A stretch of 64,000 nt of DNA from Sebaldella termitidis ATCC 33386 (lineage in GTDB: Bacteria > Fusobacteriota > Fusobacteriia > Fusobacteriales > Leptotrichiaceae). The notes beneath the pieces are model-generated. The model had not been told where the DNA came from, did no database searches, and saw nothing but the letters and a program-made list of their open reading frames with translations. Of this stretch, positions 21,515 to 63,535 are shown in pieces; the stretch's first letter is position 1; every line of letters begins with the position of its first letter. The stretch is from assembly GCF_000024405.1 (NCBI RefSeq), contig NC_013517.1, positions 992,001-1,056,000 on the forward strand, given 5' to 3'. The position numbers and the translations under genes are program-made.

Positions 21515-22033
21515 TGCTCCTCCTTTTCTTTGCAGATAAATAATCAGTTATATATATATTATCATATTTTTACATAAAACCGGAAGCAAATACAATAAAA
21601 ACTTTATATTTCTAAAGATTTTATACTGCTGAGTAAAGACTGGATTTTACTAGTTCATATTTATTAAAACAGCTATATAAGATTACAAAAATTATAATTT
21701 TATTCTTGAAGCAAGAGCTGTCAAAATAAATTCAGAATATGAATCAGAAATACTTGTATAACAAATATAAATGTAATAACAAATGTTTATACAACAAAAA
21801 TCAGAATAATGATTAAATTTAAAATAGTAAAATATTATTGTTTTATAATTTTATAAAGTAATATATCAATTTTTAGTATATAAATATATATGATTAATAT
21901 TAGATTATAAAAAAATATTATTAAAATTCTGTAATACATAAAAATATAAGAATGAAAAAGTGGTATAATTATATAAAAGATAGAAATATCTTGTCATAAT
22001 TCTAAAAAAAAATATTTTTTAATATTCTATGAT
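21515..22033. other. AT-rich intergenic stretch, no gene seen
   Basis: About 520 bases of very AT-rich sequence upstream of the regulator and before the small-gene promoter. I see no reading frame of substance and no strong hairpin; the LacI promoter must lie in the first part. Confidence 0.5.
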
Positions 22034-22104
22034 AGTCCGACAAATTATTATAAATATATATTTTTTTTATTAAAATTGACTTTAAAACGTAAATTTAGTA
22101 AAAT
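22034..22104 (+). promoter_or_regulatory. Promoter of the small-pair/autotransporter 2 operon with GTCCGACA upstream box
   Basis: AGTCCGACA (22034-22042), 33 bases, TTGACT (22076-22081), 17-base spacer, TAAAAT (22099-22104). The same layout recurs at 62865-62934 and 63465-63535. The transcript would carry a leader of about 250 bases. Confidence 0.65.
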
Positions 22105-22140
22105 ATTTATGATGCTTTACTTATGAAATCAACAAGTACG

Positions 22141-22165
22141 AATGATATTTCATTGAAATATCATT
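22141..22165 (+). other. Leader hairpin just before a strong ribosome site
   Basis: AATGATATTT (22141-22150) pairs perfectly with AAATATCATT (22156-22165), a 5-base loop, then AAAAGGAGG at 22172-22180. It may control translation of the leader reading frame at 22185. Confidence 0.45.
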
Positions 22166-22184
22166 ATTTTGAAAAGGAGGTCTG

Positions 22185-22301
22185 GTGAAAAAACTTATAT
22201 TTAAGAATGCAGATCACTGCAAGCTGTTTTACATAAGCAGCCAAGAAAAGAAACATCAGATGAAAACAACAGGTTATAAAGTAAAAAATAACATGGCATA
22301 A
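22185..22301 (+). CDS. Possible 38-codon leader peptide
   Basis: GTG at 22185, four bases after a perfect GGAGG, opens VKKLIFKNADHCKLFYISSQ and ends at 22301. The short ORF upstream of the fifth autotransporter (about 63784 on, MKDLLFRTKQCKIEANVK) shows a similar LxF...C K pattern. No homology known; it could be a regulatory leader or a chance frame. Confidence 0.35.
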   Translation: MKKLIFKNADHCKLFYISSQEKKHQMKTTGYKVKNNMA

Positions 22302-22356
22302 TACTGAACAAAATGAAATGTAAACATTTTAATAAATCAAAAAAATAGGAGGAAAA

Positions 22357-22635
22357 ATGAGAAAAATCACGTTAATTTTTTTATTAATCTTGGTATCACT
22401 GACTCTTTACAGTAATGAGGCAAAAGCAGACAGAGCTGTGGAAGAAAGTGTAACAAAAGATTATGATCAGGACGGGGTGTATTCATCATATGAAAAAGCC
22501 TTGAGAAGGGCTCAGGGTTCGATATATGTGACATTACCCGAAAAAAGAGGATACTGGTATACTATGCTTGACAGAATAAAGGCGGAAGAGGAAGAATTAA
22601 TGCCGGATGAAACAGCAAGAATGAGAAGAAAATAA
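22357..22635 (+). CDS. Small secreted protein with EF-hand-like loop
   Basis: A 92-residue protein I do not recognise. It has a clear Sec signal peptide (RKITLIFLLILVSLTLYSNEAKA). The mature part contains DYDQDGVYSSYE, which fits the 12-residue EF-hand spacing D-x-D-x-D-G-x5-E, followed by a helix EKALRRAQGSIYVTLPEKRGYWYTML and a charged tail. A single loop of this type could bind calcium. GGAGG precedes the ATG. It is followed by a second small secreted protein and autotransporter 2, and the same pair, frameshifted, precedes autotransporter 4. The role may be in periplasmic handling or surface display of the autotransporter; that is inference. Confidence 0.8.
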   Translation: MRKITLIFLLILVSLTLYSNEAKADRAVEESVTKDYDQDGVYSSYEKALRRAQGSIYVTLPEKRGYWYTMLDRIKAEEEELMPDETARMRRK

Positions 22636-22653
22636 TAATTTTTGGGAGGAAAA

Positions 22654-22920
22654 ATGAAAAAACTAGCAGTAAAAGCACTTTTATTTATTATGGGAACGAT
22701 GCTGTATTCAGCGCCTACTTATGAATATAGGAGAGAATTAAGAGAAGGGGCAAGAGGAAAGTGGACTAATTTAAGACAGCATCTTAACAGCGGAACAAGA
22801 CTGGAAAAAGAGCTGACTAAAGTAGATAAACAAATTGATAAGAAAGTAAATGAAATTCAGGAAATAGAAGATTTATTATTTAGAATAGAACAATATAAGG
22901 CAGCAAATAATATAAGATAG
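22654..22920 (+). CDS. Small secreted charged helical (coiled-coil) protein
   Basis: An 88-residue protein starting at the ATG at 22654, with GGGAGG upstream. The N-terminus is a Sec signal peptide (KKLAVKALLFIMGTMLYSA) followed by PTYEYRRELREGARGKWTNL and a heptad-like helix with LEKELTKVDKQIDKKVNEIQ and EIEDLLFRIEQY. It resembles the small helical FadA-type adhesins of Fusobacterium only in size, secretion and helicity; I would not call it FadA. It sits 16 bases upstream of autotransporter 2. Possible chaperone or anchoring partner for the passenger, not proven. Confidence 0.8.
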   Translation: MKKLAVKALLFIMGTMLYSAPTYEYRRELREGARGKWTNLRQHLNSGTRLEKELTKVDKQIDKKVNEIQEIEDLLFRIEQYKAANNIR

Positions 22921-22936
22921 TATAACAGGAGGGAAA

Positions 22937-25900
22937 ATGAAAAGAAATAAAAAATTATTAATATCATTTCTAGCACTGAATGCGATATTAATATCTTATG
23001 CAAAAGCAGAAACGGTACAGGCAACAAGATATGAAAGAATGTACAACAGTATTGTAAAGAATATAGAAAAAGGAAATACTAATGAAAAAGCCTACCAAAC
23101 ACTTGAACGAATACTCAAACAAAAAAATAAAGAATTGAAAGATTTATATCTTCAGGGAGATTATATAGTAAAACCTGAATATTTGGAGTGGCAGGTATTT
23201 TTTACCGGTTTTTATGATGAATACAGTGAGGGTCAGGATAATACCAGAGAAAATGCCAGTTATCATTCAAAAGTAACTGGTTATTACGATGTAAACGGAA
23301 ATTACGTAATGACAAGCGGAAGCATAAACGGATTATTAGGAAAACCGCATCGGTCATTACAGCAGCCGAAAGAAATAGATCTTGGAATATCAATACAGGT
23401 AAGGGAACCAAACAGACAGCCGATATCACTGGGAGTGACAAAGCCTTCAATGCCGAAGATATCTCCGAATGCACCGGTATCGTTAGCTATTAATGCACCA
23501 GTGATACCTTTAATGCCAAATTTGTCTTTTGAGATAAATCCGCCGGCAGTATTCAATGTTCCGACTGTAAGTGCAAGCGTGAATTTGAATTTGCCTAATA
23601 TAGCGGTAAGAGCTTTTAATCCTGTGGCTCCGAATCCTTATGTAGCTAATATACCTACCATAGCAAGCTTTCAGGTAAAAGTTCCAAGTACAGGAAACGG
23701 AGATGATGACTTTAACAGGTTAGGTCAGGTAAGTTCGAGTGACGGGACATCGTTTGTAGGGAATTACAGCTTTAGCAGCGGGGAGCTTGGCGGGACATGG
23801 CGGAATAGTTCGGGAACTTTAGAATCTTATTATTATACAAATTTGACCGGAAGCTCGAATTGGAAGAGCGGGACTAATACGATGACTAATGCTACTACAG
23901 GAACAATAACTGTAACTAGTCCCAAAGCAGCATTGTATGAATTTACCGGTGCACAGGTAGTAACTTTGGGAACAGCAGGGCAGCCTGTGGGAACAGTGGG
24001 AAATCCCGGAAATAATACAGTTTTGAGGATAATAGGACAGGCACCGTATACTTCATCTTCTACAATGGGGCATTTAATCCAGTTTGATCCGCATAATTCT
24101 TATTCATCAAGAACAGGATATCTGAATTATACATTAAATCATTATGGTGTAAGTACCGGAGTTTCAGCACCGGGAGATGGAAATCCCAATTATTATAATG
24201 TTCTTAGAAATCATGGTTTGATTCAGGCGGAAGGAAATTTTGTACTGATGGTAGGATTACAGGAACATGCAGATGCACATAGTGCAGTTGTTGAAAATTA
24301 TGGAGCAATGGTGGGACATTGGGATGGCAGCAGCAGTCTTTATTCAAACGGACAGGGTAAACAGGTAGCCAATGCATTTATTGCAGGCGGCGGTGGGAAT
24401 GCACAAAGAAGATTTGAATTCTATAATATGTCCGGCGGATCAATTGAAATGAGAGCACCTGAAAGTGTGGCTTATTTTTATGGAACAGTAGCATCAAAAG
24501 CTTATCATCATAATGTTATAAATAATGGGCGAATTGTAATGTATGGAGCTAATAATGTCGGAATACAGACAAATCAGGCAAGTCAGGATTTGAGCGGTTC
24601 CAAAATTATTTTGAATAAACCGATAGAAGTCAATGGAGATGAAAGTATCGGAATAGAGATAGCGAGAAATATGGATTATGGATATGGAGGTGTTACTCCA
24701 GGAGCGTATGATCCTCAGACGGCAGTGTTTAAAGTGTCACTGGGAACAGAGAGCAATAAATATTCCGGTGATTTGAATGATCCGAACTTTGTTGAAAATT
24801 CGGTCGGTTTATATATAAATATAACAAGCTACTATAGTGCTGCAAATATTGAAAGACTGAGAAATTTTGACTTTAAGTTCGGTGACTATGCAAAAGACAG
24901 TACATTAATATATGTAAAGAAAGGTAATTTACTTTTAGATACCGGCGGAACCGGAATAATAGATATAACTGCAGGTAAGAATAATACAGTAATAGCAGGT
25001 AATACCAGTGATTCTAAAATAACAATAAAGACAGATATAAATATAGGGAATGCTACTACAGAAGTAGAAAATACAACGGCAGTATTCGGAAAAGACAAAG
25101 CAGTTATTGATTTGTACGGGAATATATATGTTAACGGAAGCGGATCTTCAGGTTTTGCATTAAAGAATGACGGTACGGGAAATGCTGTGGGAACTATGCA
25201 TACAGGCTCTGCAATAACGGTAAAAAAAGGAGCAACAGGAATATACAATGATGGTACATTTAATATGACAGACGGAACAATAGAAGCAACCGGAGATTCT
25301 GCAGTAGCGGTATACGGGGCGACAGGAAATACTGATACTAATATAAACGGCGGTACAATAGAAGCCGGTTCCGGAGGAATAGCCTTATTTTCAGGTAACG
25401 GGTCTAAAATCAATATAAAATCTGCAGCAGGTATTAAAGCAAATGCCGGCGGACTTTTATTTTATAATCATGCTGGTGGAACATTTACAGGGAAATATGT
25501 TCTGGATGGTGTAGTTTCACCAAGAGTAGAGGCTGGAGGAATGGTTTTCTATTATAAAGGCGGTTCATTATCTATTTCTGATTTAGCAGGAATTCCTAAT
25601 ATATTAAATTCATTTGAAGCAAAAACATTATTTGGAACTGATAAATTAGATTTAAAAATGGCAGCGGGTTCAAGTTTAATATATCTTGAAACAACACCGG
25701 GATTAACTAAAAATATTTCGGATTTAAATTCACTTCCGTTAACACCGTTAAGTGCTTCATGGCTTACTGTAACACCAGATTCAGGAGCTATAATAAAAAC
25801 ATACACATTATCTGATCTAAATCTGATATTGGATAATGACGGAGACTCAAATTTAGATACAGGTATATACAGCCAGCTGCAGATATTGAGTTCTGATGTA

Positions 25901-28900
25901 ACTATAAACAGCGGGGTTACTGTAGCCGGAACAAAAGATGATCAGATAGCTGTAGTACAGAGAAATAAAACAGGAAGTACAAATCCTTCGGATATTTTAA
26001 TTACAAATAACGGAACAATAAATTTAACAGGAGATAAAACTGTAGGTTTAGTAGGAGATTATGCACAAATAGATACCAGTTCATCATCAGTTATCAATTT
26101 ATCCGGAGATAAATCAACAGGAATAATTTCTGCAAACGGAACTCAGACAACAAATGCCGGAACTATAATAATAGACGGGCATGAATCTCTCGGAATATAC
26201 GGTGGGAATACATTAGATGATACACCGGCAGTTTTGGGATATGGAAACGGGAAGATTAACATAACTCACAGCGGAGAAATAAAGACTACTGCCACAGCAG
26301 GGAAAAGATATGGGATATTTGTGGAGAATCTTCCTTTATACTCAGTTTCGGCAGCAGATTCAGTCGTTACGACAACAGCAGGATCAAAAATAGACCTGAG
26401 TCTGGCAGCAATGGGAGGAGTAGGAATATATTCCGATAAAAGTACTGTAAATCATTCAGGTTCTGTAAAAATCAGTTCTACTGCAACGAATAACGGTACA
26501 GGTATATATGCAATAAAAGGAACTAATGCGGAAATTTTCAGCGGCGGTTCTGTAACAGTAACAGGAGACAAAGGCTATGGATTCTTTCTGGAAAACTCTA
26601 CAGGAAAAAACAGCGGTACGATAACAGTAGGGAAAGAATCAATAGGAATAAGTCTTGCAGCGCTCTCTACAGGGAATAATAACGGAACACTTACTATAGG
26701 AGAATCTTCGGCAGGTCTGTATGTCGGCGGAACATCAACAGGAAATAACAATACAGGTGCTCTGATTACATCATCGGATTCAGAGGCTTTGGGAATTTAT
26801 GTATTAAACGGGGCAACAGGAACAAATGCAGGAAATATAACATTAACAGGACAAAAATCATCAGGAGTTTATAACAAAGGGACTTTTACAATGACTGGCG
26901 GGACAGTAGAAGTTAATTCCATATCAGGAGCAGGTATATATGCAGATGCAGGATCGACAACAAGTATAAACTCAGGAACAATAAAAGTAGGAAAAGGTGC
27001 AATAGCACTTTATGCAAACAGTTCTACGATAAATGTAGCCGGAGGAACGAATTTTGATATCTCGGGTGACACAGACGGAAAAAGTATTTTTGCATATAAT
27101 TATAATAATCTCGGTGTTATGACTACAGGTAAAGTAAATCTTACAGGAGCAACAAATACTACAGTAAATATAAATTCCGGCGGAATAGGATTTTATGTAA
27201 AAGGAATGACACTGAATACTTACATAGATAATCTGATATCAAACAGCGGAACAGGAAAACTTGAAATTGTAATGAATAATTCCAATTCAAATCTTTATGT
27301 ACTAGACAGTCCTGGTTCTGTTACACAGCTGAGTACGATTTCATCATTAGTTCCGGGAACAACCTTGGGAACAGCAGGGGATGTAGTAATTTCGACTGGA
27401 AGTGTTTCGGATTACGGGCTTTTGACACTGGTAAAAGGTGAATTGGAAATAGATCAGGATGTAAACCTTGATGCAGCTTCAGATGCTTATAATAAATCAG
27501 ACTTTGTAAACTCTTCTGTAAAATTAAATTCAGCCAAGAGTATAACAGGGACAGCAGCAAATGCTCTGGGAATAGGTCAAAGAAATTATACTGGCGGAAC
27601 ACTTGCTAATCTGCTTGTACAAAATGACGGGACTATTAATCTGACAGGGATTAAATCTACAGGAATCGCCGCAGATTTTGGACGAGTACAGAATTCGGCA
27701 GGAGCAGTGATAAATGTCGGAGAAGACGGAATAGGAATATATGCGGCGAATAGTTCACAGGTAACAAATGCAGGTGCTATAAACTTAACAAACAACGGAG
27801 TGGGTATATACGGGGCAAATTACTTTGACGGAGTAACAAGTGCGGCATATGGAACTGATGATATTGATATCACTAATTCAGGAGCAATAATTTCTACAGG
27901 AACAACAGGAAGAAATATTGGAATATATGCAAATAATACAGCAGGAGCCGGATCAACAGTAGTATTGAATACAGGCTCGAATATAGATGTTTCAAGCTCA
28001 GAAGACGGAATAGGAGTATATTCGGTAAATTCTACACTTACAATAAATGACGGAAATATAACTGTAGGGAAGAACGGAATAGGAGTATATGCAGAGGGAA
28101 CAACAGGAACAATAGCTGGCGGAACAGTAAATTTAATAGGAGATAATGCAGTAGGATATTATCTGACTAATTCGAGCAGTCTGACTAATAACGGGGGAAA
28201 TATTTATATTGACGGTCAAAATATAGTACTGACAATATCAGATGCAAGCTCAAGCATAAATTTTCTGACACCGTTTACTATAACAGCAACAGCCGGATCA
28301 ACATATGTAGCAGGAAGCATGACAGGAGGAGAGTTTTATAATAATACTACAGCAACACTAGGTTCAAATGGTATGCTTATAAATGGTCTTGGTACTGCAG
28401 TACTTTTTGGAACAGCTTCAAATGTTAATTCGACAGGAACAAATGTAGCAGGTATGGTATTAAGCGGACGATATACGGATAATCCGCTGCCTTATCCGAT
28501 TTCTGGAACACCTGTAAATGTAGAGGGAACAAATCTGGGGACGATAAGTCTTGGTGATTCATCAGCCGGAATATATCTTATGAATGGTGCAAGAGGAGAG
28601 AATAAAGGAACAATATCAGTAAACAATTATTCTGTGGCTATGTATGCAGAAGGAGCAGGCTCTTCCGTAAAAAATGACAGCGGTATTATTAGTATCGGTC
28701 AGGAATCAACAGGATTGTTTATGAAGGACGGAGCAAGTATTTCCAATACAGGAACAGCCGAAATAAACAGTACAGGGTTGAAAGCTGTAGGAATATATTC
28801 GGAAAATAATTTGGCAGGATCAGCAACAGTAACAAACAGTAATAAAATAGATTTAAACGGAGACCAGTCAATAGGAATATATACAACAGGAGAAAATAAT

Positions 28901-31471
28901 GTAACAAATACCGGAATAATAAATATAGGTAATTCATCAAGCCAGACACAGCCGGGTGTAGGAATATATGCAGATCATGTAGGCAGCAGTATTACAAATT
29001 CGGCATCAGTAAATGTCGGAGATAACGGGGTAGGGATATATAACCTAAACGGAAATGTAACAAACAGTGGAGCAATAACAGCAGGAAACGGCGGAACGGG
29101 AATATATTCCGAAGGAGGAACGATAACTTTAAATGCCGGCTCATCAATAACAACCGGTCAGAATGATGCTGTGGGAGTATATGCAGTGAATCAGACAGGC
29201 GTGGTAACGAATAACTCGACAGTATCTGTAGGAGACGGATCATACGGATTTGTATTCACAGGAACAACAGCACCGACATTTATAAATAACCAGTCAGCTG
29301 TGATAGGAAATAACAGTATATTTGTATTCTCGGATTCAGTATTATCAGCAGATAACAGCGGGGCACTGACAATGACAGGCTCTGATAACATAGGGTATTA
29401 CCTGAAAAACGGAGGATTATTTATAAATAATTCAAATATTACAGGGAATGCCGGAGTCTCTAATATAGGAGTGTATGCCAAAAATGCAGTAATAATAAAT
29501 AACGGAAATATTATTCTTGGAGATTCAAATCTTATTGAACATACAGATGCCAGCGGTGCTAAATATAAGACCGGTTATTCAGTGGGAATATACGGAGAAG
29601 ACTCAAATATAATGAATATGGCAGGAAATACTATTCAGGTAGGAAAAGAAGGGATAGGGATTTATGTAAAAGGAGCAGGCTATGCAGCAGTAAATTACGG
29701 AATTATAAATGGTTTCGGGGATGATGCCAAGGGGATATTTGCAGCGGATCACTCGGCTGTGAGAAACTACGGTACCATAAATATGACCGGGGATAATGTA
29801 ATGGGAATAGCAGGACAGAACGGAGCTCAGATATATAACGACTACAGCGGGATAATAAATGTAAGCGGAAATGACGTAACAGGGATATATCTGGCAGGCG
29901 ACGGTACAAAACTGGTAAACTACGGAACTATAAATATAACAGGGACAGGACTTGGAATAGCTTATACGCCGACAGTGGAATTAAGTGATGTAATAGATAC
30001 AACAGGCACAACGCAGGGTTATACATCAAAACAGTATAGTCTTCCTGATATGCCGACTCTTGTGAACTCAGGTGTAATAAATATAAATGTAGGCGGAAAT
30101 TTCAATTATGACGGAATAAAAGTAATAGTAACAGTCGACCCGTCTACAAATACTCCTACTACAAACTCGTCAAGCCAGGTAGGATTCGGCGGGGTAATAC
30201 CGGATAAACTGGAGGTAGCACCGGATTTTGCAGTAGGAACAGCAGCGGACAGATATGTATTTGAGAATATATTCAAAGGAGCAACAGGGAAAGGAGACTA
30301 CATATCACAGTCATTGACATGGGATGCAACAGCTCAGGGAAGCAATCTGGTAATGACAAGAAAGGCATATACAGAATTTACAGACGGTCTGTGGTATGAA
30401 GATTTTGGAGCGGCTCTGAATGAAAAATATGCTGTTACAACAGGTGAAGGAAGAAAAATATTTGACAAGATAAACTATATAACAAATGAAGCAGATTTCA
30501 GACATATAATGGCAAGTATGGCAGGAAATGTGTATGCTAATATAAACCAAAGAGAATACGATATGGCAAAGGCATTTGAAGAATCTCTGCATTTATTGCA
30601 GGATTCTGCAAATAACACAAAAGAAAATGTAAAAATAAGTGTAATAGCAGGAAAAGGAAAAAATAAAGAAGAAACTGACGGAGTAACAGGTTATGATTAT
30701 ACAACAACAGGAGTACTTGCCCTGCGTGAAGTAGAAAGAACTTACAGACATACATTCGGATATTCACTTGGATATCTGCATACAGGGTTTGAATTCAAGG
30801 ACGGAAATGAAAGTGAAGAATGGGTAGACACAATTCAGCTGGGAGTACATAATAAATATAATGTAAACGGATGGCAGTTAAGAAATGATCTTACAGGAAG
30901 AGCAAGTATCCATAATGTGGACAGAAATATAGACTGGCCAAGCCCTAACAGCAGATCAGAAATGAACGGGTCGTATGAAACATACAGTATAACAAGTGAC
31001 AATATACTTGGAAAAGAATTTGAACTGGGGAAAAAAGCAAGTATAATGCCGTACGGGGCCTTTAAGGCAATGTATGTGACAAGACCGTCATTTGAAGAGA
31101 AAGGTCTTGAAAGACTGGAAGTAGAAGGAAATGATGCATGGAGTGCAAAACCGAGAGCAGGAGTGGAGCTGAAAGGTGCAGTGCCTCTAGGAGCTAACAC
31201 AGCATGGCAGTTAAAGGGAACTTTGGATTTAGCGTATGAATATGAACTTGCTGATTTGAATGAAAGAGAGAAAGCAAGATTAGTAACAATAGAGGATGAA
31301 TATCACAAATTATCAAAACCTGAAGATGAAAAGGGAACATTCAGAACAAGAGCAGCCATAGGAGTAGAAGTAGAAGACAGATATGGTTTATTCCTGACAG
31401 GAGAGTATTCAACAGGAAATGATAAAGAAGATGATTACAGAGCAGGAGTGAGTTTGAAAGCAGTATTTTAA
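22937..31471 (+). CDS. Giant autotransporter adhesin 2 (type V secretion), subfamily B
   Basis: A 2844-residue surface protein, the largest here. Signal peptide (KRNKKLLISFLALNAILISYAKA), N-terminal autotransporter-associated domain (about 30-115), Pro-rich linker, then a segment TGNGDDDFNRLG..ELGGTWRNSSG shared with autotransporter 4. The passenger consists of hundreds of short beta-helix repeats (NNGTI, SGIYA, VGxNGxGVY). A module of the form LEID-x-D-VNLD...ITGTA...IGQRN...NDGTINLTG appears twice, near residues 965 and 1500, about 535 residues apart, which accounts for the extra length. The beta-domain spans roughly the last 350 residues and ends LKAVF. Cysteines were not seen. Co-transcribed with the two small genes upstream. 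Confidence 0.95.
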   Translation: MKRNKKLLISFLALNAILISYAKAETVQATRYERMYNSIVKNIEKGNTNEKAYQTLERILKQKNKELKDLYLQGDYIVKPEYLEWQVFFTGFYDEYSEGQDNTRENASYHSKVTGYYDVNGNYVMTSGSINGLLGKPHRSLQQPKEIDLGISIQVREPNRQPISLGVTKPSMPKISPNAPVSLAINAPVIPLMPNLSFEINPPAVFNVPTVSASVNLNLPNIAVRAFNPVAPNPYVANIPTIASFQVKVPSTGNGDDDFNRLGQVSSSDGTSFVGNYSFSSGELGGTWRNSSGTLESYYYTNLTGSSNWKSGTNTMTNATTGTITVTSPKAALYEFTGAQVVTLGTAGQPVGTVGNPGNNTVLRIIGQAPYTSSSTMGHLIQFDPHNSYSSRTGYLNYTLNHYGVSTGVSAPGDGNPNYYNVLRNHGLIQAEGNFVLMVGLQEHADAHSAVVENYGAMVGHWDGSSSLYSNGQGKQVANAFIAGGGGNAQRRFEFYNMSGGSIEMRAPESVAYFYGTVASKAYHHNVINNGRIVMYGANNVGIQTNQASQDLSGSKIILNKPIEVNGDESIGIEIARNMDYGYGGVTPGAYDPQTAVFKVSLGTESNKYSGDLNDPNFVENSVGLYINITSYYSAANIERLRNFDFKFGDYAKDSTLIYVKKGNLLLDTGGTGIIDITAGKNNTVIAGNTSDSKITIKTDINIGNATTEVENTTAVFGKDKAVIDLYGNIYVNGSGSSGFALKNDGTGNAVGTMHTGSAITVKKGATGIYNDGTFNMTDGTIEATGDSAVAVYGATGNTDTNINGGTIEAGSGGIALFSGNGSKINIKSAAGIKANAGGLLFYNHAGGTFTGKYVLDGVVSPRVEAGGMVFYYKGGSLSISDLAGIPNILNSFEAKTLFGTDKLDLKMAAGSSLIYLETTPGLTKNISDLNSLPLTPLSASWLTVTPDSGAIIKTYTLSDLNLILDNDGDSNLDTGIYSQLQILSSDVTINSGVTVAGTKDDQIAVVQRNKTGSTNPSDILITNNGTINLTGDKTVGLVGDYAQIDTSSSSVINLSGDKSTGIISANGTQTTNAGTIIIDGHESLGIYGGNTLDDTPAVLGYGNGKINITHSGEIKTTATAGKRYGIFVENLPLYSVSAADSVVTTTAGSKIDLSLAAMGGVGIYSDKSTVNHSGSVKISSTATNNGTGIYAIKGTNAEIFSGGSVTVTGDKGYGFFLENSTGKNSGTITVGKESIGISLAALSTGNNNGTLTIGESSAGLYVGGTSTGNNNTGALITSSDSEALGIYVLNGATGTNAGNITLTGQKSSGVYNKGTFTMTGGTVEVNSISGAGIYADAGSTTSINSGTIKVGKGAIALYANSSTINVAGGTNFDISGDTDGKSIFAYNYNNLGVMTTGKVNLTGATNTTVNINSGGIGFYVKGMTLNTYIDNLISNSGTGKLEIVMNNSNSNLYVLDSPGSVTQLSTISSLVPGTTLGTAGDVVISTGSVSDYGLLTLVKGELEIDQDVNLDAASDAYNKSDFVNSSVKLNSAKSITGTAANALGIGQRNYTGGTLANLLVQNDGTINLTGIKSTGIAADFGRVQNSAGAVINVGEDGIGIYAANSSQVTNAGAINLTNNGVGIYGANYFDGVTSAAYGTDDIDITNSGAIISTGTTGRNIGIYANNTAGAGSTVVLNTGSNIDVSSSEDGIGVYSVNSTLTINDGNITVGKNGIGVYAEGTTGTIAGGTVNLIGDNAVGYYLTNSSSLTNNGGNIYIDGQNIVLTISDASSSINFLTPFTITATAGSTYVAGSMTGGEFYNNTTATLGSNGMLINGLGTAVLFGTASNVNSTGTNVAGMVLSGRYTDNPLPYPISGTPVNVEGTNLGTISLGDSSAGIYLMNGARGENKGTISVNNYSVAMYAEGAGSSVKNDSGIISIGQESTGLFMKDGASISNTGTAEINSTGLKAVGIYSENNLAGSATVTNSNKIDLNGDQSIGIYTTGENNVTNTGIINIGNSSSQTQPGVGIYADHVGSSITNSASVNVGDNGVGIYNLNGNVTNSGAITAGNGGTGIYSEGGTITLNAGSSITTGQNDAVGVYAVNQTGVVTNNSTVSVGDGSYGFVFTGTTAPTFINNQSAVIGNNSIFVFSDSVLSADNSGALTMTGSDNIGYYLKNGGLFINNSNITGNAGVSNIGVYAKNAVIINNGNIILGDSNLIEHTDASGAKYKTGYSVGIYGEDSNIMNMAGNTIQVGKEGIGIYVKGAGYAAVNYGIINGFGDDAKGIFAADHSAVRNYGTINMTGDNVMGIAGQNGAQIYNDYSGIINVSGNDVTGIYLAGDGTKLVNYGTINITGTGLGIAYTPTVELSDVIDTTGTTQGYTSKQYSLPDMPTLVNSGVININVGGNFNYDGIKVIVTVDPSTNTPTTNSSSQVGFGGVIPDKLEVAPDFAVGTAADRYVFENIFKGATGKGDYISQSLTWDATAQGSNLVMTRKAYTEFTDGLWYEDFGAALNEKYAVTTGEGRKIFDKINYITNEADFRHIMASMAGNVYANINQREYDMAKAFEESLHLLQDSANNTKENVKISVIAGKGKNKEETDGVTGYDYTTTGVLALREVERTYRHTFGYSLGYLHTGFEFKDGNESEEWVDTIQLGVHNKYNVNGWQLRNDLTGRASIHNVDRNIDWPSPNSRSEMNGSYETYSITSDNILGKEFELGKKASIMPYGAFKAMYVTRPSFEEKGLERLEVEGNDAWSAKPRAGVELKGAVPLGANTAWQLKGTLDLAYEYELADLNEREKARLVTIEDEYHKLSKPEDEKGTFRTRAAIGVEVEDRYGLFLTGEYSTGNDKEDDYRAGVSLKAVF

Positions 31472-52105: not shown

Positions 52106-52383
52106 ATGAGAAAAGCAGTATTGATATTTCTGGTATTATGTACAATATTTGTAGTATACGGAAAAACAGATGAAGATATGAGACTTCTGGAAGAAAGCAT
52201 AACTAAAGATTATGATCAGGACGGTAAATATTCGGCCTATGAAAAAGCTTTAAGAAGGGCACAAGAAAGTATTTATGTAGCACTGCCCGAAAAAAAGGTT
52301 ATTGGTATACAATGCTGGAAAAAATCAAAATTGAAGAAGCGGAACTATATACTGATGTAGAAGCGAGAATGAAGAAAAAATAA
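52106..52383 (+). pseudogene. Frameshifted copy of the EF-hand-loop secreted protein
   Basis: The frame from 52106 gives MRKAVLIFLVLCTIFVVYGK, then DYDQDGKYSAYEKALRRAQ, aligned with the protein at 22357. It then runs off into an unrelated tail (KVIGIQCWKKSKL) and stops at 52360. In the frame restored by adding one A to the seven-A tract at 52290-52296, the sequence reads KGYWYTMLEKIKIEEAEL and ends EARMKKK at 52381-52383, matching the intact gene. So one base is missing in a homopolymer. Either a true mutation, phase variation, slippage during expression or a sequencing error; GGAGG upstream and codon integrity elsewhere favour recent origin. Confidence 0.85.
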
Positions 52384-52398
52384 AACAGGAGGATAAAA

Positions 52399-52666
52399 AT
52401 GAAAAAAATATTGCCTGTATTTTTGTTTTTTATCAGCTGCAGCAGTATCCAGTGCTGTAAAAACATATGAATACAAAAGAGAATTAAGAGAAGGGGCAAG
52501 AGGGAAATGGGTAAATCTGAGAAAACATTTAAGTAGCGGGGAAGGGCTCGAAAAAGAGCTGATAAAAGTAGACCGCCAAATAGATAAGAAGGTGAATGAA
52601 ATTCAGGAAATAGAAGAATTATTATTTAAAATAGAAAAATATAAGATTGAAAATAATATCAGATGA
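52399..52666 (+). pseudogene. Frameshifted copy of the secreted charged helical protein
   Basis: ATG at 52399 follows GGAGG and encodes a signal-like MKKILPVFLFF, but meets a stop after about 23 codons. Removing one T from the six-T tract at 52426-52431 restores SAAAVSSAVKTYEYKRELRE and on through GARGKWVNLRKHL to the end EKYKIENNIR at 52664-52666, matching the protein at 22654. The reading frame downstream is otherwise open and conserved. The repaired signal peptide would end near VSSA. As with its neighbour, the lesion is one base in a homopolymer. Confidence 0.85.
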
Positions 52667-52682: not shown

Positions 52683-55600
52683 ATGAAAAAATATAAAAAG
52701 TTTATAGTAGGATTTTTAGCATTGAATTCTATGATAACATCCTATAGTGAAACTTTGGGAGTTCAATCTTCGGGAAAATATGACAGAATATACGAAAATA
52801 TAATAAAAAATATAAACAGAGGCAGACCAAGCGATACTTCATATAAATTAATAGAACAAATGCTGAAAAAGAAAAATAAAGAATTAAAAGATTTATATAA
52901 TCAGGGCGATTATATTGTAAAGCCTGAATATCTGGAATGGCAGATATTTTTCAGCGGATTTTATGCAGAAAGGGATAAGGGGGATAATACTGAGGAAAAT
53001 GCTGAAAGACATTCAGATCCTACATATGGGACAACAGGGTTTTATGACGAAGACGGCAGATATATAATAACAGGAACAAATAAAGCAGCTTACGGAAAAG
53101 AATACAGAGATCCTCAGGCACCAAGAACCGTTAATCTGGGAGTAAGCATTCCTATAAAAGGGCTTTCCAGAGGAGAGGTACACCTTGATTTGCCGTCGGG
53201 AAGTCCTGTAGAGATAAATCCGAGAAATTATGATGTATCTCCTCCTTCCGGGCTGGTAATTCCTGAAATTAATGTGTTCAGATTTGAAATAAATATTCCT
53301 TCAGTAGTCCTGCCTGTTATAACTACTCCGGGTTCATTTACCGTATCTGTTCCTGATACCGGTAATGGAGATGATACTGGAAGTTATCTTGGAGTAGCAA
53401 ATTCATATACTGCTAAAATAGCTCAGTTTAATCTTACATCAGGACTTTTGGAAGGAACATGGAGCAGTACTTCCAGTCTGTCTGCTTACAGAGCAGTAAA
53501 TTTAAACGGGAAAAGCGATTACGGCGGAACTACAATGGGAAGCAGAGCAGATATTACAAATTATACTTATTCTTCAAACAGCGGTGACGGAGCCGTGGCA
53601 CTGTATAAAGTAGGGGGAGCTGAAAAAATAACACTGGGGACACAGGGAGATCCAAATGCTTTTATAATGAGAATAATAAGTAATGTGGGTGATTCATATC
53701 CGGCTGCCAGTACACTTCCGCATTTGATACAATATGATCCTCACGGAAGCCGAGGGACTTATAACAGATATCTTACGAATTATTACGGAACAGGAATTAC
53801 GCCTTCAGGAATATTTGATTATTATGCAGAGCTTAATAACTACGGAAGACTGGAGGGAATAGGTGATTCATTTCTAATGATAGGTCTTCAGGAGCATACG
53901 GGAAATTTCAGCCCCACTGTAAAAAATTACGGAACAATAATAGGGATCGCAGATGATCAGTATACTCAGGGCGGAAGAAGACATGTAGCTTTTTCATTTA
54001 TGGCACCGCAGCAGCATGGAACACAAGGCAGAAGATTTGAATTTTATAATATGACCGGTGGAAAAATTGAACTGCAGGCAAGAGAAAGTATTGCATTTAA
54101 TTTTGGTGCTTCTCCCGGACTTGCTACCAGACCGCATTTTTTGATATATAATGACGGAGATGTTGTTCTTTACGGGAATAACAGCGTGGGAGTGAAAACA
54201 GCAAATAATAATCTTGATCTCCCATATTCAAAACTGGTATTTAATAAACCTATAAGAATAAACGGAGATCAGAGTATAGGAGTAGAACTGGTAAAAACTA
54301 TGGATGACGGATATGGAAATGTAGAAGCCGGGAAATATGATCCTATGGAAGCTGTGATCAAAGTCATAATAGGTGACGAGCCGAACAGTAACACCGGAGA
54401 TTCTAAAGGAGATAAGTCAAAAGTAGAAGAATCAATAGGTTTATATATAAATAAATCAACTATTGATTACAGGCTCGGAACCTTTGATTTTCAGTTTGGG
54501 GAATATGCCAAAAGAAGTACTTTGATTAATATTTCCAGCGGAAAGTTATTTCTGGATGATAATAAAGTAAGTGAAATATTCATAAATAAGGGGATAGATA
54601 ATTTTGGTATTATTGCAACAGGATCAGCCTCCGAATTAACATTAAAACCAAATATTAAAATAGGAACTGCGGCGGATAATGTAAACGGAACAATAGCATT
54701 ATACGGGACAAACGGAGCAAAAATTCATCTTCATTCCGGAAATAATATCGAAACAAACGGACTAAATTCTCACGGAATAATACTAACCAATTCGAATACA
54801 GTTCTGGATGATACATCATCCGGCGGTTCAAACCATTCTTTTACAGCGACGGGTAATGAAAGTACAGTAATATATACAGAAAACGGAGCTTCAGTAAATC
54901 TAGCCAATTCATCAAATATAGATGTAAAAGCAACAGGAGAAAAATCAATAGGGGTATATACAAAAGGAGGAACAGTAACACTGGGAACAGCAGGTACAGG
55001 TACGGGAACATATGAAATAGGGAAAAACGGAGTTCTCTTTTATAGTGACGGTACCGGAAACGGAAGAATAAATATTTCGGGAACTGACTTTACTGTGGGA
55101 GAAGGTTCATTATTTGTAAGAATAAATACGCCGTCGTTAATTGCAGGTAATCAGCAGATAAATTTTACGCATAATACAGGAAATACAAATCTGAATCTGC
55201 TGTCAGGAGGTATAGGATTCGTCTATACCGGAGACGGAATTAATCCGGTAGGGCTTTCAGATATTCAGAATTATTTTTCAAATAATTTTACCGGAATCAG
55301 CAATATGAATGTAACAGTTAATAAAGGAGCAAGACTTTTTGTAATAGAAAAGTATGCATCTATGAATCTTTCGGATATTATAGCAATCAGTTCCCCGACA
55401 GGCTTATTTAATGATGTGCGGAATAACGGCGGAAGTAAAGCATTTATGGTAAGGGGTAATCTGGTTCTTGATCCTGCAGGGGGTGTAATTAACCTTGATG
55501 ATATAAATGAAGATTATAATAACATAGAAAGAGCACTAACGGGAATAACGGTGCCTTCGGGGGTGACTGTAACAGGAAGCGGCGACAGACAGACTGCATT

Positions 55601-58600
55601 GGTAGATGATAATTCATATGACAGTACATTATATGTAAAAATGGAGAATAACGGAACTATAAATCTTACAGGAAATAATTCAACAGCAATATATGTCAAT
55701 AACGGACAGATTGATAATAAGGGAACGGTCAGCTCTATAGGTAACGGAGGAATAGGGTTGTTTGGAGAAAATGGTACAGTGATTAAAAATACAAATTTAA
55801 TAACCATAGCCGATAACGGAGTAGGAATATACGGGATATCATATCAGGATCCTGCTTCAGTGCCTGTATACGGCGGAGGGAAAATCAATATTACCAATAC
55901 AGGAATAATTCAATCAAATACGGGACAGCACGCTATAGGAATATATGCCGAAAATAACAGGACAGGCGGAGGAATTGCGGATTCACATATAGATTTGTCA
56001 AATGGAAAAATAAATCTTCAGAATTCAGAAGGAGCAATAGGCTTATATGTGGATAAAGGAACAGTCACAGACTCAGGCTCTGAGATAACTGTGGGAAAAA
56101 ACGGCATAGGAATATATGCAAAAGACAGCGATATAACATTAACAGGGACAACAGTAAATTTATTTGGTGATAATGCTTTGGGGCTGTATGCTGACGGAAA
56201 TACCAATCTTATTGGGAATGGCCAGATAAACATATCAGGAAAAAATGTTGTGTTATTTAATATGGTTTCAAGCGGTTCAATAACTAATAATTTTGTGGTA
56301 AATAATGTAGCACCCGGTTCTTCATATACTTTGGGAAATATATCCGGAACGAGCTTTGAATATGCGGGAAGCAGTCACCTGTCATCAGATGGAACGCTGA
56401 TTAGCGGAAAAGATTCCACAATATTATTAAATGCTCTTTCATCAGTAAATGCTAATTCGGGAGAAATAAATATTGCTGCTCTTATAGCAGACGGGCAGTA
56501 TACAGGAATTACTCCTTCAGGATTCACTCCGGGAATAGAGGGGGAAAACAGAGGAACAATCATAATGGGGAATTTATCCGCGGGATTAATAGGGAAAAAT
56601 AATGCAAGATTAAAAAATGACGGTTTCATAACTGTAGGAAATAATTCGGCAGGTATGACATCTTTTGGAGGAGGTGCCCTTTTATTAAATACAAAATCTA
56701 TAATAATAGGGAGTGATTCACACGGGATGTATCTGCAGAATGGTACTGATATAACCAATGATACGGGGGGAATAATAACAAGTGCCGGTAATAATTCGGT
56801 GGGGATATATGCTGATGCTATAACAGGGACTATTACAAACAAAGGGATAATAAGGTTAACCGGTGATAAAGAAATAGGAATTTATGCAACAGGAGCAAGC
56901 AATAAAATAATTAACAATGACGGTTTAATAGAAATAGGCGACTCAATTGACATAAATGTCCCGAATATAGGAATCTACAGCGAAACTGCCGGAGATACAT
57001 TTACCAACAACGGAACTGTAACTTCCGGAAAAAATTCAATAGGAATGTACAATTACGGGGATACGGTAATACAAAACGGAATATTGAATGTGGGAGATAC
57101 GGGGGTGGGAGCATATATAACAAATGGTAATATAACTAATACAACTGCAGCACAGTTCAATTTTATGAGCATAAATGCTATAGGAGTATATGCTTTAAAC
57201 AGTCAGGTTTCCAACAGTGCCTTGATGAATATAGGCAACAGTAATTACGGATTTATATTAATGGACAGCAGCTTTATAAATATGGCACCTAATATTAATC
57301 TGGGAACAGATTCGGTGTTTGTTTACAGATCAGGGGCAGGAAATATAGTAAATAATGCAGGTACTGCCATAGCAATGAGCGGATCAGACAACATTGCTTA
57401 TTATACGATAAACGGCGGAAGTATAACAAATGACGGGGATATTATCGGAACAGCCGGAAAAAATAATGTAGGTATTTATAATGTCGGAGGCGGAATTCTA
57501 AATAACGGTATAGTGGCGATAGGTGATTCAGATATAGCATATAAAAAAGACAGCCTGGGAAACTATATATATGATGTTAACGGAAACAGAATACTAGATG
57601 CGGAGAACAGTAAATATGCAGTTGGACTTTACGGGGAAGGTTCTGCTATATCAAACAGTGCATCAGGAAATATTACAGTAGGTGAGGGTTCGATAGGAAT
57701 AGCCACAAAGGGCGGAAGCGGAATCAATGATGGAGTAATAACAGGAACGGGTGAAAGTACAAGAGGTATGTATACTGAGAAAGGAACAGTAATAAATAAT
57801 AATATCATAAATATAACAGGGGATAATGCAATCGGAATGGCAGGAAACGGAGCAGGATCAGTAGTTATAAACAATGGTACGGTTACAGTTACCGGAAAAA
57901 ATGTAATAGGATTATACGGGAATCTCGCAACAACAGTAATAAACTCTGGAACAGTAATAGCAAATGGCGAAGGTGCAGCGGGAATAGTACTTTCACAAGG
58001 TTCGAAGCTGGATAATACAGCAAGCGGGACTATGATAATTAATAGTGTAAGAACTGAGAATTACGGGACAAGTGCCGGTGAAATATATGAAACTCCTACA
58101 ATAATAAATTCAGGAGTAATAAAAATATCAGAAAAATTTGAGACAGACGGAATAAATGTAGTAATAAAGGTAGATCCTGAAAGTGTAAGAAAGCCCACAC
58201 CGGAAGAGATAGCAGCCGGCGGATATGATCCGTCAGATTCAGGAGCGGACTATCTTATATCAAATGCAGTGAGTATAGAGGCGCCTTCATTTACTATAAC
58301 AGATCCGCTGCAGATAAGCGGAAATTTCACAGAAGGAACAAATGTAAAAAAATATAAACTTGAAGATATAATAAAATCAGCTTCGGGGCACGGAGTAAAT
58401 GAAGGAATGGTTCCTGTAGTGAGCAGATCACTGACCTGGCGGGCAACTCCGATAGTAAATGAAGCAGGACATGTGGATATCTGGATGGAGAAAATAGACT
58501 ACAATGAATTTACCGGAGGCTTGTGGTATGAGGAATTCGGTGCCGCTTTGGAAGATAAATACTATAATGCTGCAGGAGATGCACTTACTATTTATGATAA

Positions 58601-59612
58601 AATAGATGTCATAGAAAAAGAATCTGATTTTAGACATGTAATGGCAAGTCTTGCAGGAAATATATATTCCAATATAAACCAGCGTGAGGAAGATATGGCA
58701 AGAACTTTTGAAAATGCATTGGATGTAATCATAAATTCAAAAAATAATACAAAAGAAAATATAAAAATAAATATAATAGCTGGAAAAGGTAAGACTAAGG
58801 ATGATACAGACGGTATAACAGATTATGATTACACAACAACCGGAATACTCGCACTCAGAGAGGTGGAAAGAACCCACAGACATACATTCGGTTACTCGCT
58901 CGGATATCTTCATACAGGATTTGAATTTAAGGATGGAAATGAGAGTGAGGAGCTGGTGGATACAATACAGCTGGGAGTACATAATAAATATACAGTAAAC
59001 GGATGGAAGCTAAGAAACGATTTGACAGGAAGAGTAAGTTTTCATAATATAGACAGAAATATAGACTGGCCGAACAGACCGTTTGGGACAGAAAGGGAAG
59101 AAATGAACGGAAATTATGAAACTTACAGCTTCACATCTGATAATATACTGGGAAAAGAATTTAGTATTGGGAAACAAGTAAGTGTAATGCCTTACGGGGC
59201 ATTCAGAGCTATGTATGTGACAAGACCGACATTTAGCGAGAGCGGTACGGAAAGACTCCAGGTAGAGGGAAATGATGCTTGGAGCGCAAAGCCGAGAGCG
59301 GGATTGGAGGTGAAAGGAGAGATGCCGCTGAGTAACAAAACAGCATGGAAACTAACTGGAAAACTTGACTTTGCTTATGAATATGAACTCGCTGACTTAA
59401 ATGAGCGGGAAAGAGCAAAACTCATAGCAGTGGAAGACAGTTACCATAAATTATCAAAACCAGAGGAAGAAAAAGGTATGTTCAGAGCAAAAGCTTTATT
59501 TGGCATAGAGGTGGAGGATAGATACGGTTTATTCCTTACAGGGGAATATATGACGGGAAATGATGATCAAGATGATTACAGAGCAGGAGTAACACTAAAA
59601 GCAGTATTTTAA
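52683..59612 (+). CDS. Giant autotransporter adhesin 4 (type V secretion), subfamily B
   Basis: With the ATG at 52683 (GGAGGAG upstream) the protein has 2309 residues. It has a signal peptide (KKYKKFIVGFLALNSMITSYS), the N-terminal domain (KYDRIYENIIKNINRGRPS to KPEYLEWQIFFSGFYAE), then TGNGDDTGSYLG and LLEGTWSSTSS shared with autotransporter 2. The passenger has beta-helix repeats and YGNNSVGVKTANNN, like autotransporter 2. The beta-domain begins near LWYEEFGAALEDKYY and ends LKAVF. It is the most divergent of the four beta-domains (for example IKINIIAGKGKTKDDTDGI). Preceded by two frameshifted small genes. Confidence 0.95.
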   Translation: MKKYKKFIVGFLALNSMITSYSETLGVQSSGKYDRIYENIIKNINRGRPSDTSYKLIEQMLKKKNKELKDLYNQGDYIVKPEYLEWQIFFSGFYAERDKGDNTEENAERHSDPTYGTTGFYDEDGRYIITGTNKAAYGKEYRDPQAPRTVNLGVSIPIKGLSRGEVHLDLPSGSPVEINPRNYDVSPPSGLVIPEINVFRFEINIPSVVLPVITTPGSFTVSVPDTGNGDDTGSYLGVANSYTAKIAQFNLTSGLLEGTWSSTSSLSAYRAVNLNGKSDYGGTTMGSRADITNYTYSSNSGDGAVALYKVGGAEKITLGTQGDPNAFIMRIISNVGDSYPAASTLPHLIQYDPHGSRGTYNRYLTNYYGTGITPSGIFDYYAELNNYGRLEGIGDSFLMIGLQEHTGNFSPTVKNYGTIIGIADDQYTQGGRRHVAFSFMAPQQHGTQGRRFEFYNMTGGKIELQARESIAFNFGASPGLATRPHFLIYNDGDVVLYGNNSVGVKTANNNLDLPYSKLVFNKPIRINGDQSIGVELVKTMDDGYGNVEAGKYDPMEAVIKVIIGDEPNSNTGDSKGDKSKVEESIGLYINKSTIDYRLGTFDFQFGEYAKRSTLINISSGKLFLDDNKVSEIFINKGIDNFGIIATGSASELTLKPNIKIGTAADNVNGTIALYGTNGAKIHLHSGNNIETNGLNSHGIILTNSNTVLDDTSSGGSNHSFTATGNESTVIYTENGASVNLANSSNIDVKATGEKSIGVYTKGGTVTLGTAGTGTGTYEIGKNGVLFYSDGTGNGRINISGTDFTVGEGSLFVRINTPSLIAGNQQINFTHNTGNTNLNLLSGGIGFVYTGDGINPVGLSDIQNYFSNNFTGISNMNVTVNKGARLFVIEKYASMNLSDIIAISSPTGLFNDVRNNGGSKAFMVRGNLVLDPAGGVINLDDINEDYNNIERALTGITVPSGVTVTGSGDRQTALVDDNSYDSTLYVKMENNGTINLTGNNSTAIYVNNGQIDNKGTVSSIGNGGIGLFGENGTVIKNTNLITIADNGVGIYGISYQDPASVPVYGGGKINITNTGIIQSNTGQHAIGIYAENNRTGGGIADSHIDLSNGKINLQNSEGAIGLYVDKGTVTDSGSEITVGKNGIGIYAKDSDITLTGTTVNLFGDNALGLYADGNTNLIGNGQINISGKNVVLFNMVSSGSITNNFVVNNVAPGSSYTLGNISGTSFEYAGSSHLSSDGTLISGKDSTILLNALSSVNANSGEINIAALIADGQYTGITPSGFTPGIEGENRGTIIMGNLSAGLIGKNNARLKNDGFITVGNNSAGMTSFGGGALLLNTKSIIIGSDSHGMYLQNGTDITNDTGGIITSAGNNSVGIYADAITGTITNKGIIRLTGDKEIGIYATGASNKIINNDGLIEIGDSIDINVPNIGIYSETAGDTFTNNGTVTSGKNSIGMYNYGDTVIQNGILNVGDTGVGAYITNGNITNTTAAQFNFMSINAIGVYALNSQVSNSALMNIGNSNYGFILMDSSFINMAPNINLGTDSVFVYRSGAGNIVNNAGTAIAMSGSDNIAYYTINGGSITNDGDIIGTAGKNNVGIYNVGGGILNNGIVAIGDSDIAYKKDSLGNYIYDVNGNRILDAENSKYAVGLYGEGSAISNSASGNITVGEGSIGIATKGGSGINDGVITGTGESTRGMYTEKGTVINNNIINITGDNAIGMAGNGAGSVVINNGTVTVTGKNVIGLYGNLATTVINSGTVIANGEGAAGIVLSQGSKLDNTASGTMIINSVRTENYGTSAGEIYETPTIINSGVIKISEKFETDGINVVIKVDPESVRKPTPEEIAAGGYDPSDSGADYLISNAVSIEAPSFTITDPLQISGNFTEGTNVKKYKLEDIIKSASGHGVNEGMVPVVSRSLTWRATPIVNEAGHVDIWMEKIDYNEFTGGLWYEEFGAALEDKYYNAAGDALTIYDKIDVIEKESDFRHVMASLAGNIYSNINQREEDMARTFENALDVIINSKNNTKENIKINIIAGKGKTKDDTDGITDYDYTTTGILALREVERTHRHTFGYSLGYLHTGFEFKDGNESEELVDTIQLGVHNKYTVNGWKLRNDLTGRVSFHNIDRNIDWPNRPFGTEREEMNGNYETYSFTSDNILGKEFSIGKQVSVMPYGAFRAMYVTRPTFSESGTERLQVEGNDAWSAKPRAGLEVKGEMPLSNKTAWKLTGKLDFAYEYELADLNERERAKLIAVEDSYHKLSKPEEEKGMFRAKALFGIEVEDRYGLFLTGEYMTGNDDQDDYRAGVTLKAVF

Positions 59613-62774: not shown

Positions 62775-62864
62775 TTATTTACTCCTTTCTTATTATAATT
62801 TAACAATATTCGCATTTTATAAATAATACGAACATTTTTTTTGTGTTTTTAACTTTAAAATTAT

Positions 62865-62934
62865 GGTCTGACATTTTTTAAATTTTTATTTTTTAAAAAT
62901 TAAAATTGACTTTATTAAGCAGTTTTAGTAAAAT
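62865..62934 (+). promoter_or_regulatory. Autotransporter-type promoter with GTCTGACA box (distal)
   Basis: GGTCTGACA (62865-62873), 32 bases, TTGACT (62906-62911), 17-base spacer, TAAAAT (62929-62934). Confidence 0.55.
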
Positions 62935-63464: not shown

Positions 63465-63535
63465 GGTCTGACAATTTCTGTGAAATGTGTTTTTTTATAA
63501 TTAGAATTGACTTCAAATGCTATTTTTAGTAGAAT
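63465..63535 (+). promoter_or_regulatory. Autotransporter-type promoter with GTCTGACA box (proximal)
   Basis: GGTCTGACA (63465-63473), 33 bases, TTGACT (63507-63512), 17-base spacer, TAGAAT (63530-63535). Best candidate for the fifth autotransporter, with a leader of about 320 bases. Confidence 0.6.

What the first reader, a model, noticed from the sequence alone, without database searches (positions are those of the whole stretch)
22357..22920. Undescribed secreted pair (EF-hand-loop protein and coiled-coil protein) linked to giant autotransporters
Two consecutive small secreted proteins precede autotransporter 2, and homologues precede autotransporter 4. The first has a perfect 12-residue DxDxDGxxxxxE spacing in both copies (DYDQDGVYSSYE and DYDQDGKYSAYE) and the second a short charged helix. 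The pair goes with the two autotransporters that share the TGNGDD passenger segment, not with the other two. This suggests an accessory module for secretion, folding (calcium-dependent) or surface anchoring of one autotransporter subfamily.
Basis: partly seen in the sequence, partly recalled or inferred. Interest (0 to 1): 0.7.

Follow-up and report, generated by a model that had tools for sequence, protein, structure and literature searches.

The report
Phase-switched adhesin operon's small secreted genes
The two small secreted proteins are the second and third genes of a three-gene set that travels with giant surface adhesins in the termite-gut bacterium Sebaldella, and the intact copies of this operon sit behind a promoter that flips direction, so that the bacterium can probably switch individual adhesins on and off.

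Summary
The pair is real: two tightly packed secreted-protein genes upstream of autotransporter 2 (window 22357-22635 and 22654-22920). The window lies in Sebaldella termitidis NCTC 11300T. Genome-wide there are 13 B-C copies: eight intact before giant autotransporters, two decayed (at autotransporter 4 both genes are frameshifted), three with no adjoining autotransporter, two of them kept in other species. The full module has three genes, A-B-C; A is a probable short FadA relative and only a remnant here. The nearest known system is the F. nucleatum rapA-rapB-fad-I-radD operon: same layout, but B and C show no detectable homology outside Sebaldella. The link to TGNGDD passengers holds (7 of 7 in three genomes), but the module also serves other passengers. 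Calcium binding stays unproven.

The unexpected result is regulatory. Five of six intact A-B-C-autotransporter operons, plus one decayed copy, lie behind a promoter between inverted 26-bp sites 139-141 bp apart; all six point OFF. At the orthologous locus in a second species the segment is inverted, ON. The window's copy is a degraded switch fixed ON. Verdict: new variant of a known kind; I found no description of such an adhesin switch in Fusobacteriota. The biochemical role of B and C is undetermined.

The parts
21946..22180 (+). Degenerate invertible-promoter segment upstream of the module, in the ON orientation
   Evidence: Aligns over its whole length with the flipped inverton of paralogue L107 (score 224 flipped, 134 unflipped); against five paralogous 115-bp segments scores are 86-114 inverted, 26-34 same orientation, shuffled maxima 38-44. 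Recombination sites are decayed: no site within 6 mismatches here.
22076..22104 (+). Promoter TTGACT-17-TAAAAT facing the module and autotransporter 2
   Evidence: Consensus scan; the same element lies in reverse in L091, L093, L094, L096, L107 and L097 and in the forward direction in L063, L092, L095.
22118..22143 (+). Remnant of the right-hand recombination site (consensus ATTCGTAAAATTTAACAAATACGAAT)
   Evidence: Alignment.
22231..22343 (+). Remnant of gene A (probable short FadA relative), no longer an open frame
   Evidence: DNA local alignment to intact A genes, score 61 against shuffled maxima of 33-42.
22357..22635 (+). Gene B: 92-aa secreted protein with the loop DYDQDGVYSSYE
   Evidence: further copies in this genome; family confined to Sebaldella.
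22654..22920 (+). Gene C: 88-aa secreted protein predicted as one long helix
   Evidence: model mean pLDDT 81.7, helix 2-84.
22937..31471 (+). Autotransporter 2 (2844 aa), fusobacterial N-terminal domain, RadD-like C-terminal part, TGNGDD passenger segment
   Evidence: NF049908 over residues 1966-2839, E 5.8e-116, below the curated cut-off; NF033175 below its cut-off; TGNGDD at residue ~251.
52106..52383 (+). Gene B copy of autotransporter 4, frameshifted after residue ~63
52399..52666 (+). Gene C copy of autotransporter 4, frameshifted near the end of the signal peptide
   Evidence: 71% identity over residues 12-88 in the shifted frame.
52683..59612 (+). Autotransporter 4, open reading frame intact, TGNGDD passenger segment
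62808..62975 (+). Second inverton in the window, upstream of autotransporter 5, with promoter 62906-62934 pointing ON; related but divergent sites, no A-B-C module
   Evidence: Arms 22 of 26 complementary, 144 bp apart.

Best explanation
B and C are genes 2 and 3 of a Sebaldella three-gene secreted-protein module, A-B-C, placed in one probable operon in front of giant type V autotransporters, laid out like the F. nucleatum rapA-rapB-fad-I-radD operon. Intact operons are read from a promoter on a ~167-bp segment between inverted 26-bp sites. A tyrosine recombinase, probably acting from elsewhere in the genome, flips the segment, so the module and its adhesin go ON or OFF together (phase variation). 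The module proteins are small, helical and exported. They most likely act in the periplasm or at the surface as partners of the adhesin or modulators of its level, and can be supplied in trans by the conserved copies that have no adjoining autotransporter. In the window the copy before autotransporter 2 has lost gene A and has a degraded switch fixed ON; the module of autotransporter 4 is decayed. Shown by sequence: gene content, conservation, decay, sites, promoter orientation, and opposite orientation of one orthologous switch in two species. Inferred: active switching, which recombinase does it, co-transcription, and what B and C do.
For: Module: 13 B-C copies in the genome, 9 with A, tight spacing and ribosome sites. 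Conserved across four Sebaldella genomes, dN/dS 0-0.16 in all orthologue pairs tested, including copies without an adjoining autotransporter. A to FadA: hhalign probability 82, score 30.8 against a column-shuffled maximum of 21.9; 5 of 8 members match Pfam FadA weakly, best E 0.006, below cut-off. Switch: pattern search finds 13 sites in G000 and 0 in the reversed-pattern control; 12 form six inverted pairs 139-141 bp apart, all upstream of module or module-remnant autotransporters; further pairs in G088 and G089. The promoter is reversed in all six. Orthologous locus G089:C7 against G000 plasmid C2: flanks 92% and 88% identical, inner 115 bp 91% identical when inverted against 65% direct, so ON in one and OFF in the other. 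Eight tyrosine recombinase matches in G000, one a single-domain 190-aa protein at C1:432,482-433,054 with the R...HxxR...H...Y pattern.
Against: No reads or transcripts were available, so inversion within one strain is not shown. L100 has an intact A-B-C-autotransporter but no canonical site pair, and the window's own copy is degraded. Two autotransporters (window AT5, L078) have divergent invertons without a module, so switch and module are not strictly coupled. B and C have no proven relatives outside Sebaldella; profile comparison with the second and third small genes of Leptotrichiaceae operons gave nothing convincing against shuffled controls. No function is shown for any module protein here. 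The recombinase assignment rests on size and fold only.
Confidence: 0.7

Rival explanations
1. The pair is a calcium-dependent chaperone or secretion aid needed in cis by the TGNGDD autotransporters.
For: All seven strong TGNGDD-type autotransporters in three genomes have the module or a remnant of it; the D-x-D-x-D-G loop is invariant among homologues; the loop falls between two helices in the model.
Against: Most intact module copies before autotransporters serve other passengers; autotransporter 4 is open with a decayed module; module copies exist without an autotransporter; Tyr at loop position 8 and Lys at 13 depart from the EF-hand pattern; model confidence over the loop is about 50; F. 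nucleatum counterparts are not required for RadD function (PMC7023056).
Confidence: 0.15
2. The module genes encode FadA-like surface subunits that form their own fibres or adhesins, and merely share an operon and switch with the autotransporter.
For: A resembles FadA and RapA, first gene of the rad operon, is a FadA family member (PMC7023056); C is a long helix; copies without an adjoining autotransporter are kept under purifying selection.
Against: A and C are much shorter than FadA and B has no such similarity; most copies are tied to autotransporters.
Confidence: 0.25
3. The small genes act on the amount of the adhesin (feedback on expression), as reported for fad-I and radD, rather than on its folding or display.
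For: In F. nucleatum deletion of fad-I raises radD transcript 3.5- to 6-fold and binding to streptococci (PMC7023056); same gene order.
Against: FAD-I is a lipoprotein without an obvious relation to C; no such data exist for Sebaldella.
Confidence: 0.3
4. The inverted segments are fixed evolutionary rearrangements between paralogues, not a working switch.
For: All six site pairs in the single finished genome show the same (OFF) orientation; no read data.
Against: Spacing of 139-141 bp and near-perfect sites kept at six dispersed loci including a plasmid, with decay where the promoter is fixed ON; opposite orientation at an orthologous locus with conserved flanks; several contigs of G088 and G089 end close to these segments or the module start, as expected where orientations are mixed.
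Confidence: 0.12

Closest known systems
F. nucleatum radD operon (rapA/fadA2-rapB-fad-I-radD, also called radABCD)
   Same: Three small exported genes directly before a giant autotransporter adhesin; first small gene FadA-related; RadD-like C-terminal region in the autotransporter.
   Different: B and C find no relative in any Fusobacterium genome searched; Sebaldella proteins are shorter (about 65-96 aa against 123-129 aa) and lack an evident lipobox; about ten loci per genome; an invertible promoter in place of the reported CarSR-controlled promoter (PMC12186487).
E. coli ipuS-upaE (PMC6083910) and fimS promoter inversion systems
   Same: Promoter between inverted sites upstream of an autotransporter or adhesin operon; tyrosine recombinases, some acting on several switches from a distance.
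   Different: Different phylum; six near-identical switches drive paralogous adhesin operons in one genome; no recombinase gene beside the switches; activity not shown.
Leptotrichiaceae FadA / small secreted / small secreted / lipoprotein / OmpA-like / autotransporter operons (loci L205, L212, L213, L219, L231, L233, L236)
   Same: FadA-like first gene with the RW(H/L)RD(K/E)YK...L segment matching gene A, then small exported proteins, then an autotransporter.
   Different: Longer proteins, extra lipoprotein and OmpA-like genes; second and third genes not detectably homologous to B and C.
EF-hand proteins
   Same: D-x-D-x-D-G-x-x-S-x-x-E ligand spacing between two predicted helices.
   Different: Single loop, Tyr at position 8, Lys after position 12, no EF-hand family match, low-confidence model.

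Membership tests
RadD-type operon accessory module | Small exported genes directly upstream of a fusobacterial giant autotransporter, same strand, tight spacing | tested here: met
RadD-type operon accessory module | First small gene a FadA family member | tested here: inconclusive
   Profile match to Leptotrichiaceae FadA clearly above shuffled controls, but Pfam FadA below its cut-off.
RadD-type operon accessory module | Second and third genes homologous to RapB and FAD-I | tested here: inconclusive
   B and C compared by profile with genes 2 and 3 of Leptotrichiaceae operons: no convincing signal. No match in any non-Sebaldella genome among 96 Fusobacteriales beyond marginal chance-level ones. 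RapB and FAD-I themselves were not compared directly.
RadD-type operon accessory module | Co-transcription with the autotransporter | not testable with these tools
   No transcript data; gaps and ribosome sites are compatible.
RadD autotransporter adhesin (NF049908) | Score above the curated cut-off | tested here: not met
   388 bits against a cut-off of 3500; best stretch covers only the C-terminal ~870 residues.
EF-hand calcium site | Ligand spacing D-x-D-x-D-G-x-x-S-x-x-E | tested here: met
EF-hand calcium site | Aliphatic at position 8 and hydrophobic at position 13 (PROSITE-type pattern, recalled from memory) | tested here: not met
   Tyr and Lys; the strict pattern finds no hit.
EF-hand calcium site | Helix-loop-helix fold | tested here: inconclusive
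   Model has helices 2-33 and 44-59 around the loop, but mean pLDDT is 62 and about 50 in the loop; no fold match in PDB.
EF-hand calcium site | Calcium binding | not testable with these tools
   Needs purified protein.
Invertible promoter (inverton) | Promoter flanked by inverted repeats of fixed spacing | tested here: met
Invertible promoter (inverton) | Both orientations seen at one locus | tested here: met
   Between species only: G089:C7 ON, G000 plasmid C2 OFF, with conserved flanks. Within one strain not testable here.
Invertible promoter (inverton) | Cognate site-specific recombinase | tested here: inconclusive
   A single-domain tyrosine recombinase of 190 aa is present but not adjacent.

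The most novel reading that the evidence does not exclude
Sebaldella carries a genome-wide adhesin switchboard: near-identical recombination sites, served by one recombinase in trans, flip promoters of paralogous A-B-C-autotransporter operons on chromosome and plasmid, while conserved A-B-C copies without sites or autotransporter supply the accessory proteins continuously. B and C would then be a new, genus-specific class of small helical partners for giant fusobacterial autotransporters.
Probability: 0.4. Interest if true: 0.75.

Novelty: new variant of a known kind. Interest (0 to 1): 0.55.

Why it matters
Giant autotransporters such as RadD are major adhesins of fusobacteria, yet the role of the small proteins encoded with them is open, and I found no report of promoter inversion controlling adhesins in this phylum. 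Sebaldella offers about ten natural replicates of the operon, including decayed ones and module copies without an autotransporter, which makes the role of the small genes testable by comparison and the switch testable by simple PCR.

Tried and rejected
Homology of B and C to the second and third small genes of Leptotrichiaceae operons: visual resemblance (YY..VVRSV.REEKEL against YW.TMLDRIKAEEEEL) failed profile comparison with shuffled controls, so not claimed. Search for B and C in PDB, Pfam, NCBIfam, plasmids and viral contigs (B in plasmids, C in viral contigs): nothing significant. NCBIfam CT795 match of B (E 0.0018, 18 bits against a cut-off of 72) rejected as a chance match that includes the signal peptide. 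Fold search of the B model: no hits; the model is too weak to interpret. Association of the module with the two-partner secretion genes in L089: not accepted, because the related copy in G088 (L135) is not followed by such genes within the 1.2 kb held. The 16-19 nt inverted repeats near other autotransporters were treated as chance in AT-rich DNA unless they had the CG-ended arms and ~141 bp spacing. An A remnant was also looked for upstream of the autotransporter-4 and L063 modules and not found.

Full report
What the window is. The assembly has contigs of 4,418,842 and 54,160 bases and 4,486,650 bases in all, which fit the chromosome and two plasmids published for Sebaldella termitidis NCTC 11300T (PMC3035275). 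It holds about 49 places with the autotransporter N-terminal domain. Five of them start in the window.

The observation. Gene B (22357-22635) and gene C (22654-22920) are real ORFs with signal peptides, tight spacing and good ribosome sites. The D-x-D-x-D-G-x5-E loop occurs in the window's ORFs only in the two B copies and is kept in all 25 B sequences collected from four genomes. The B and C copies before autotransporter 4 are both frameshifted at homopolymer runs, while autotransporter 4 stays open.

Genome-wide picture. B and C occur 13 times, counting remnants: eight intact pairs before autotransporters, two decayed (window autotransporter 4 and the remnant at 2424 kb), and three without an adjoining autotransporter of this type (683 kb, 2430 kb, 304 kb). 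In nine copies a third exported gene, A (about 65-69 aa), comes first. The window copy before autotransporter 2 keeps only a DNA remnant of A at 22231-22343. The copies at 683 kb and 2430 kb keep their downstream neighbours in other Sebaldella species. dN/dS is 0-0.16 for B and C in all orthologue pairs compared, so the copies without an autotransporter look like working genes, not debris.

Distribution. Among 96 Fusobacteriales genomes B and C have convincing matches only in the four Sebaldella genomes, as does A. A scan of the GTDB collection with patterns from B returned only Sebaldella-type metagenome bins. Plasmid (B) and viral (C) collections gave no relatives.

Link to passengers. The ~270-residue TGNGDD passenger start is present in exactly four of 47 autotransporters tested here, all with the module, one of them decayed (Fisher p = 0.001). 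Over three genomes there are seven strong matches (E below 1e-50), and each has a module or remnant directly upstream. Two weak matches include window autotransporter 5, which has no module. The module also serves other passenger types, so it is not specific to the TGNGDD type. On trees, module presence is patchy: five label changes on the N-terminal tree and eight on the barrel tree.

The switch. Upstream of gene A in L091, L093, L094, L096 and L107 the promoter found in front of the window copy (TTGACT-17-TAAAAT, 22076-22104) lies in reverse. It is bounded by inverted 26-bp sites, consensus ATTCGTAAAATTTAACAAATRCGAAT, which are themselves dyads. A pattern search gave 13 sites in G000 and none for the reversed control; 12 of them form six inverted pairs 139-141 bp apart, all upstream of module or module-remnant autotransporters, one on the 54-kb plasmid. 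All six point OFF. In G089 the locus orthologous to the plasmid copy has the same flanks (92% and 88%) and gene A start, but its inner 115 bp match at 91% only when inverted (65% direct): it is ON. This is direct comparative evidence of inversion. The window's copy aligns along its whole length with the flipped form of L107 (score 224 against 134) and has lost recognisable sites: a switch fixed ON. L063 looks alike. Autotransporter 5 in the window and L078 have related, more divergent invertons without a module.

Candidate enzyme. PF00589 finds eight tyrosine recombinase matches. One, at C1:432,482-433,054, is a single-domain protein of 190 aa, the size class of FimB (recalled), with the expected catalytic residues; it matches XerA/XerC models below cut-off. 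It is not adjacent to any switch, so action in trans would be needed. This is inference.

Function of B and C. C is modelled as one long helix (mean pLDDT 81.7). B is modelled with low confidence (61.7), with helices on either side of the loop and no fold match. The loop meets the EF-hand ligand spacing but departs at positions 8 and 13. Calcium binding is possible but unproven. The best external guide is F. nucleatum: rapA, rapB and fad-I precede radD, RapA belongs to the FadA family, and loss of fad-I raises radD expression and binding (PMC7023056); the operon is under CarSR control (PMC12186487). Gene A is a probable short FadA relative. B and C show no detectable homology to the other small proteins tested. 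They therefore sit in the same place as the rad small genes, but membership by descent is not shown.

Literature. Searches of the open library for inversion or phase variation with fusobacterial autotransporters returned no report of this switch. The library lacks most subscription papers, so absence there is weak evidence of novelty. The nearest functional analogue found is the ipuS switch of the UpaE autotransporter in E. coli (PMC6083910).

Conclusion. I am confident of the anatomy, fairly confident of a phase switch, and uncertain about what B and C do.

Noticed in passing
window 62808-62975: A divergent inverton with its promoter pointing ON lies upstream of autotransporter 5, which has no A-B-C module; a second promoter of the same type is at 63507-63535.
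   Followed up: partly
L089 (G000:C1:301000-320000): An A-B-C copy is followed at 468 bp by what looks like a two-partner secretion transporter gene, a 145-aa secreted protein and a 2651-aa TpsA-like exoprotein.
   Followed up: partly
L096 (G000:C2:45000-54160): A complete switch-A-B-C-autotransporter operon lies on the 54-kb plasmid, so the unit can move between replicons.
   Followed up: no
L078 (G000:C1:559547-570000), about 190 bp before the autotransporter: A further inverted-site pair of the same type (22 of 26, 144 bp apart) without a module or a recognised promoter inside.
   Followed up: no
L309 (G000:C1:601535) and L310 (G088:C38, locus 1488-1654): A single recombination site in G000, and a site pair in G088, with no autotransporter gene recognised in the stretches read.
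   Followed up: no
L205, L212, L213, L219, L231, L233, L236: Leptotrichiaceae carry repeated FadA / small / small / lipoprotein / OmpA-like / autotransporter operons, apparently a wider version of the rad-type layout.
   Followed up: partly
L075 (G000:C1:1905989-1917500): An autotransporter whose N-terminal domain (169-aa frame) is separated by a stop or frameshift from the 2085-aa remainder.
   Followed up: no
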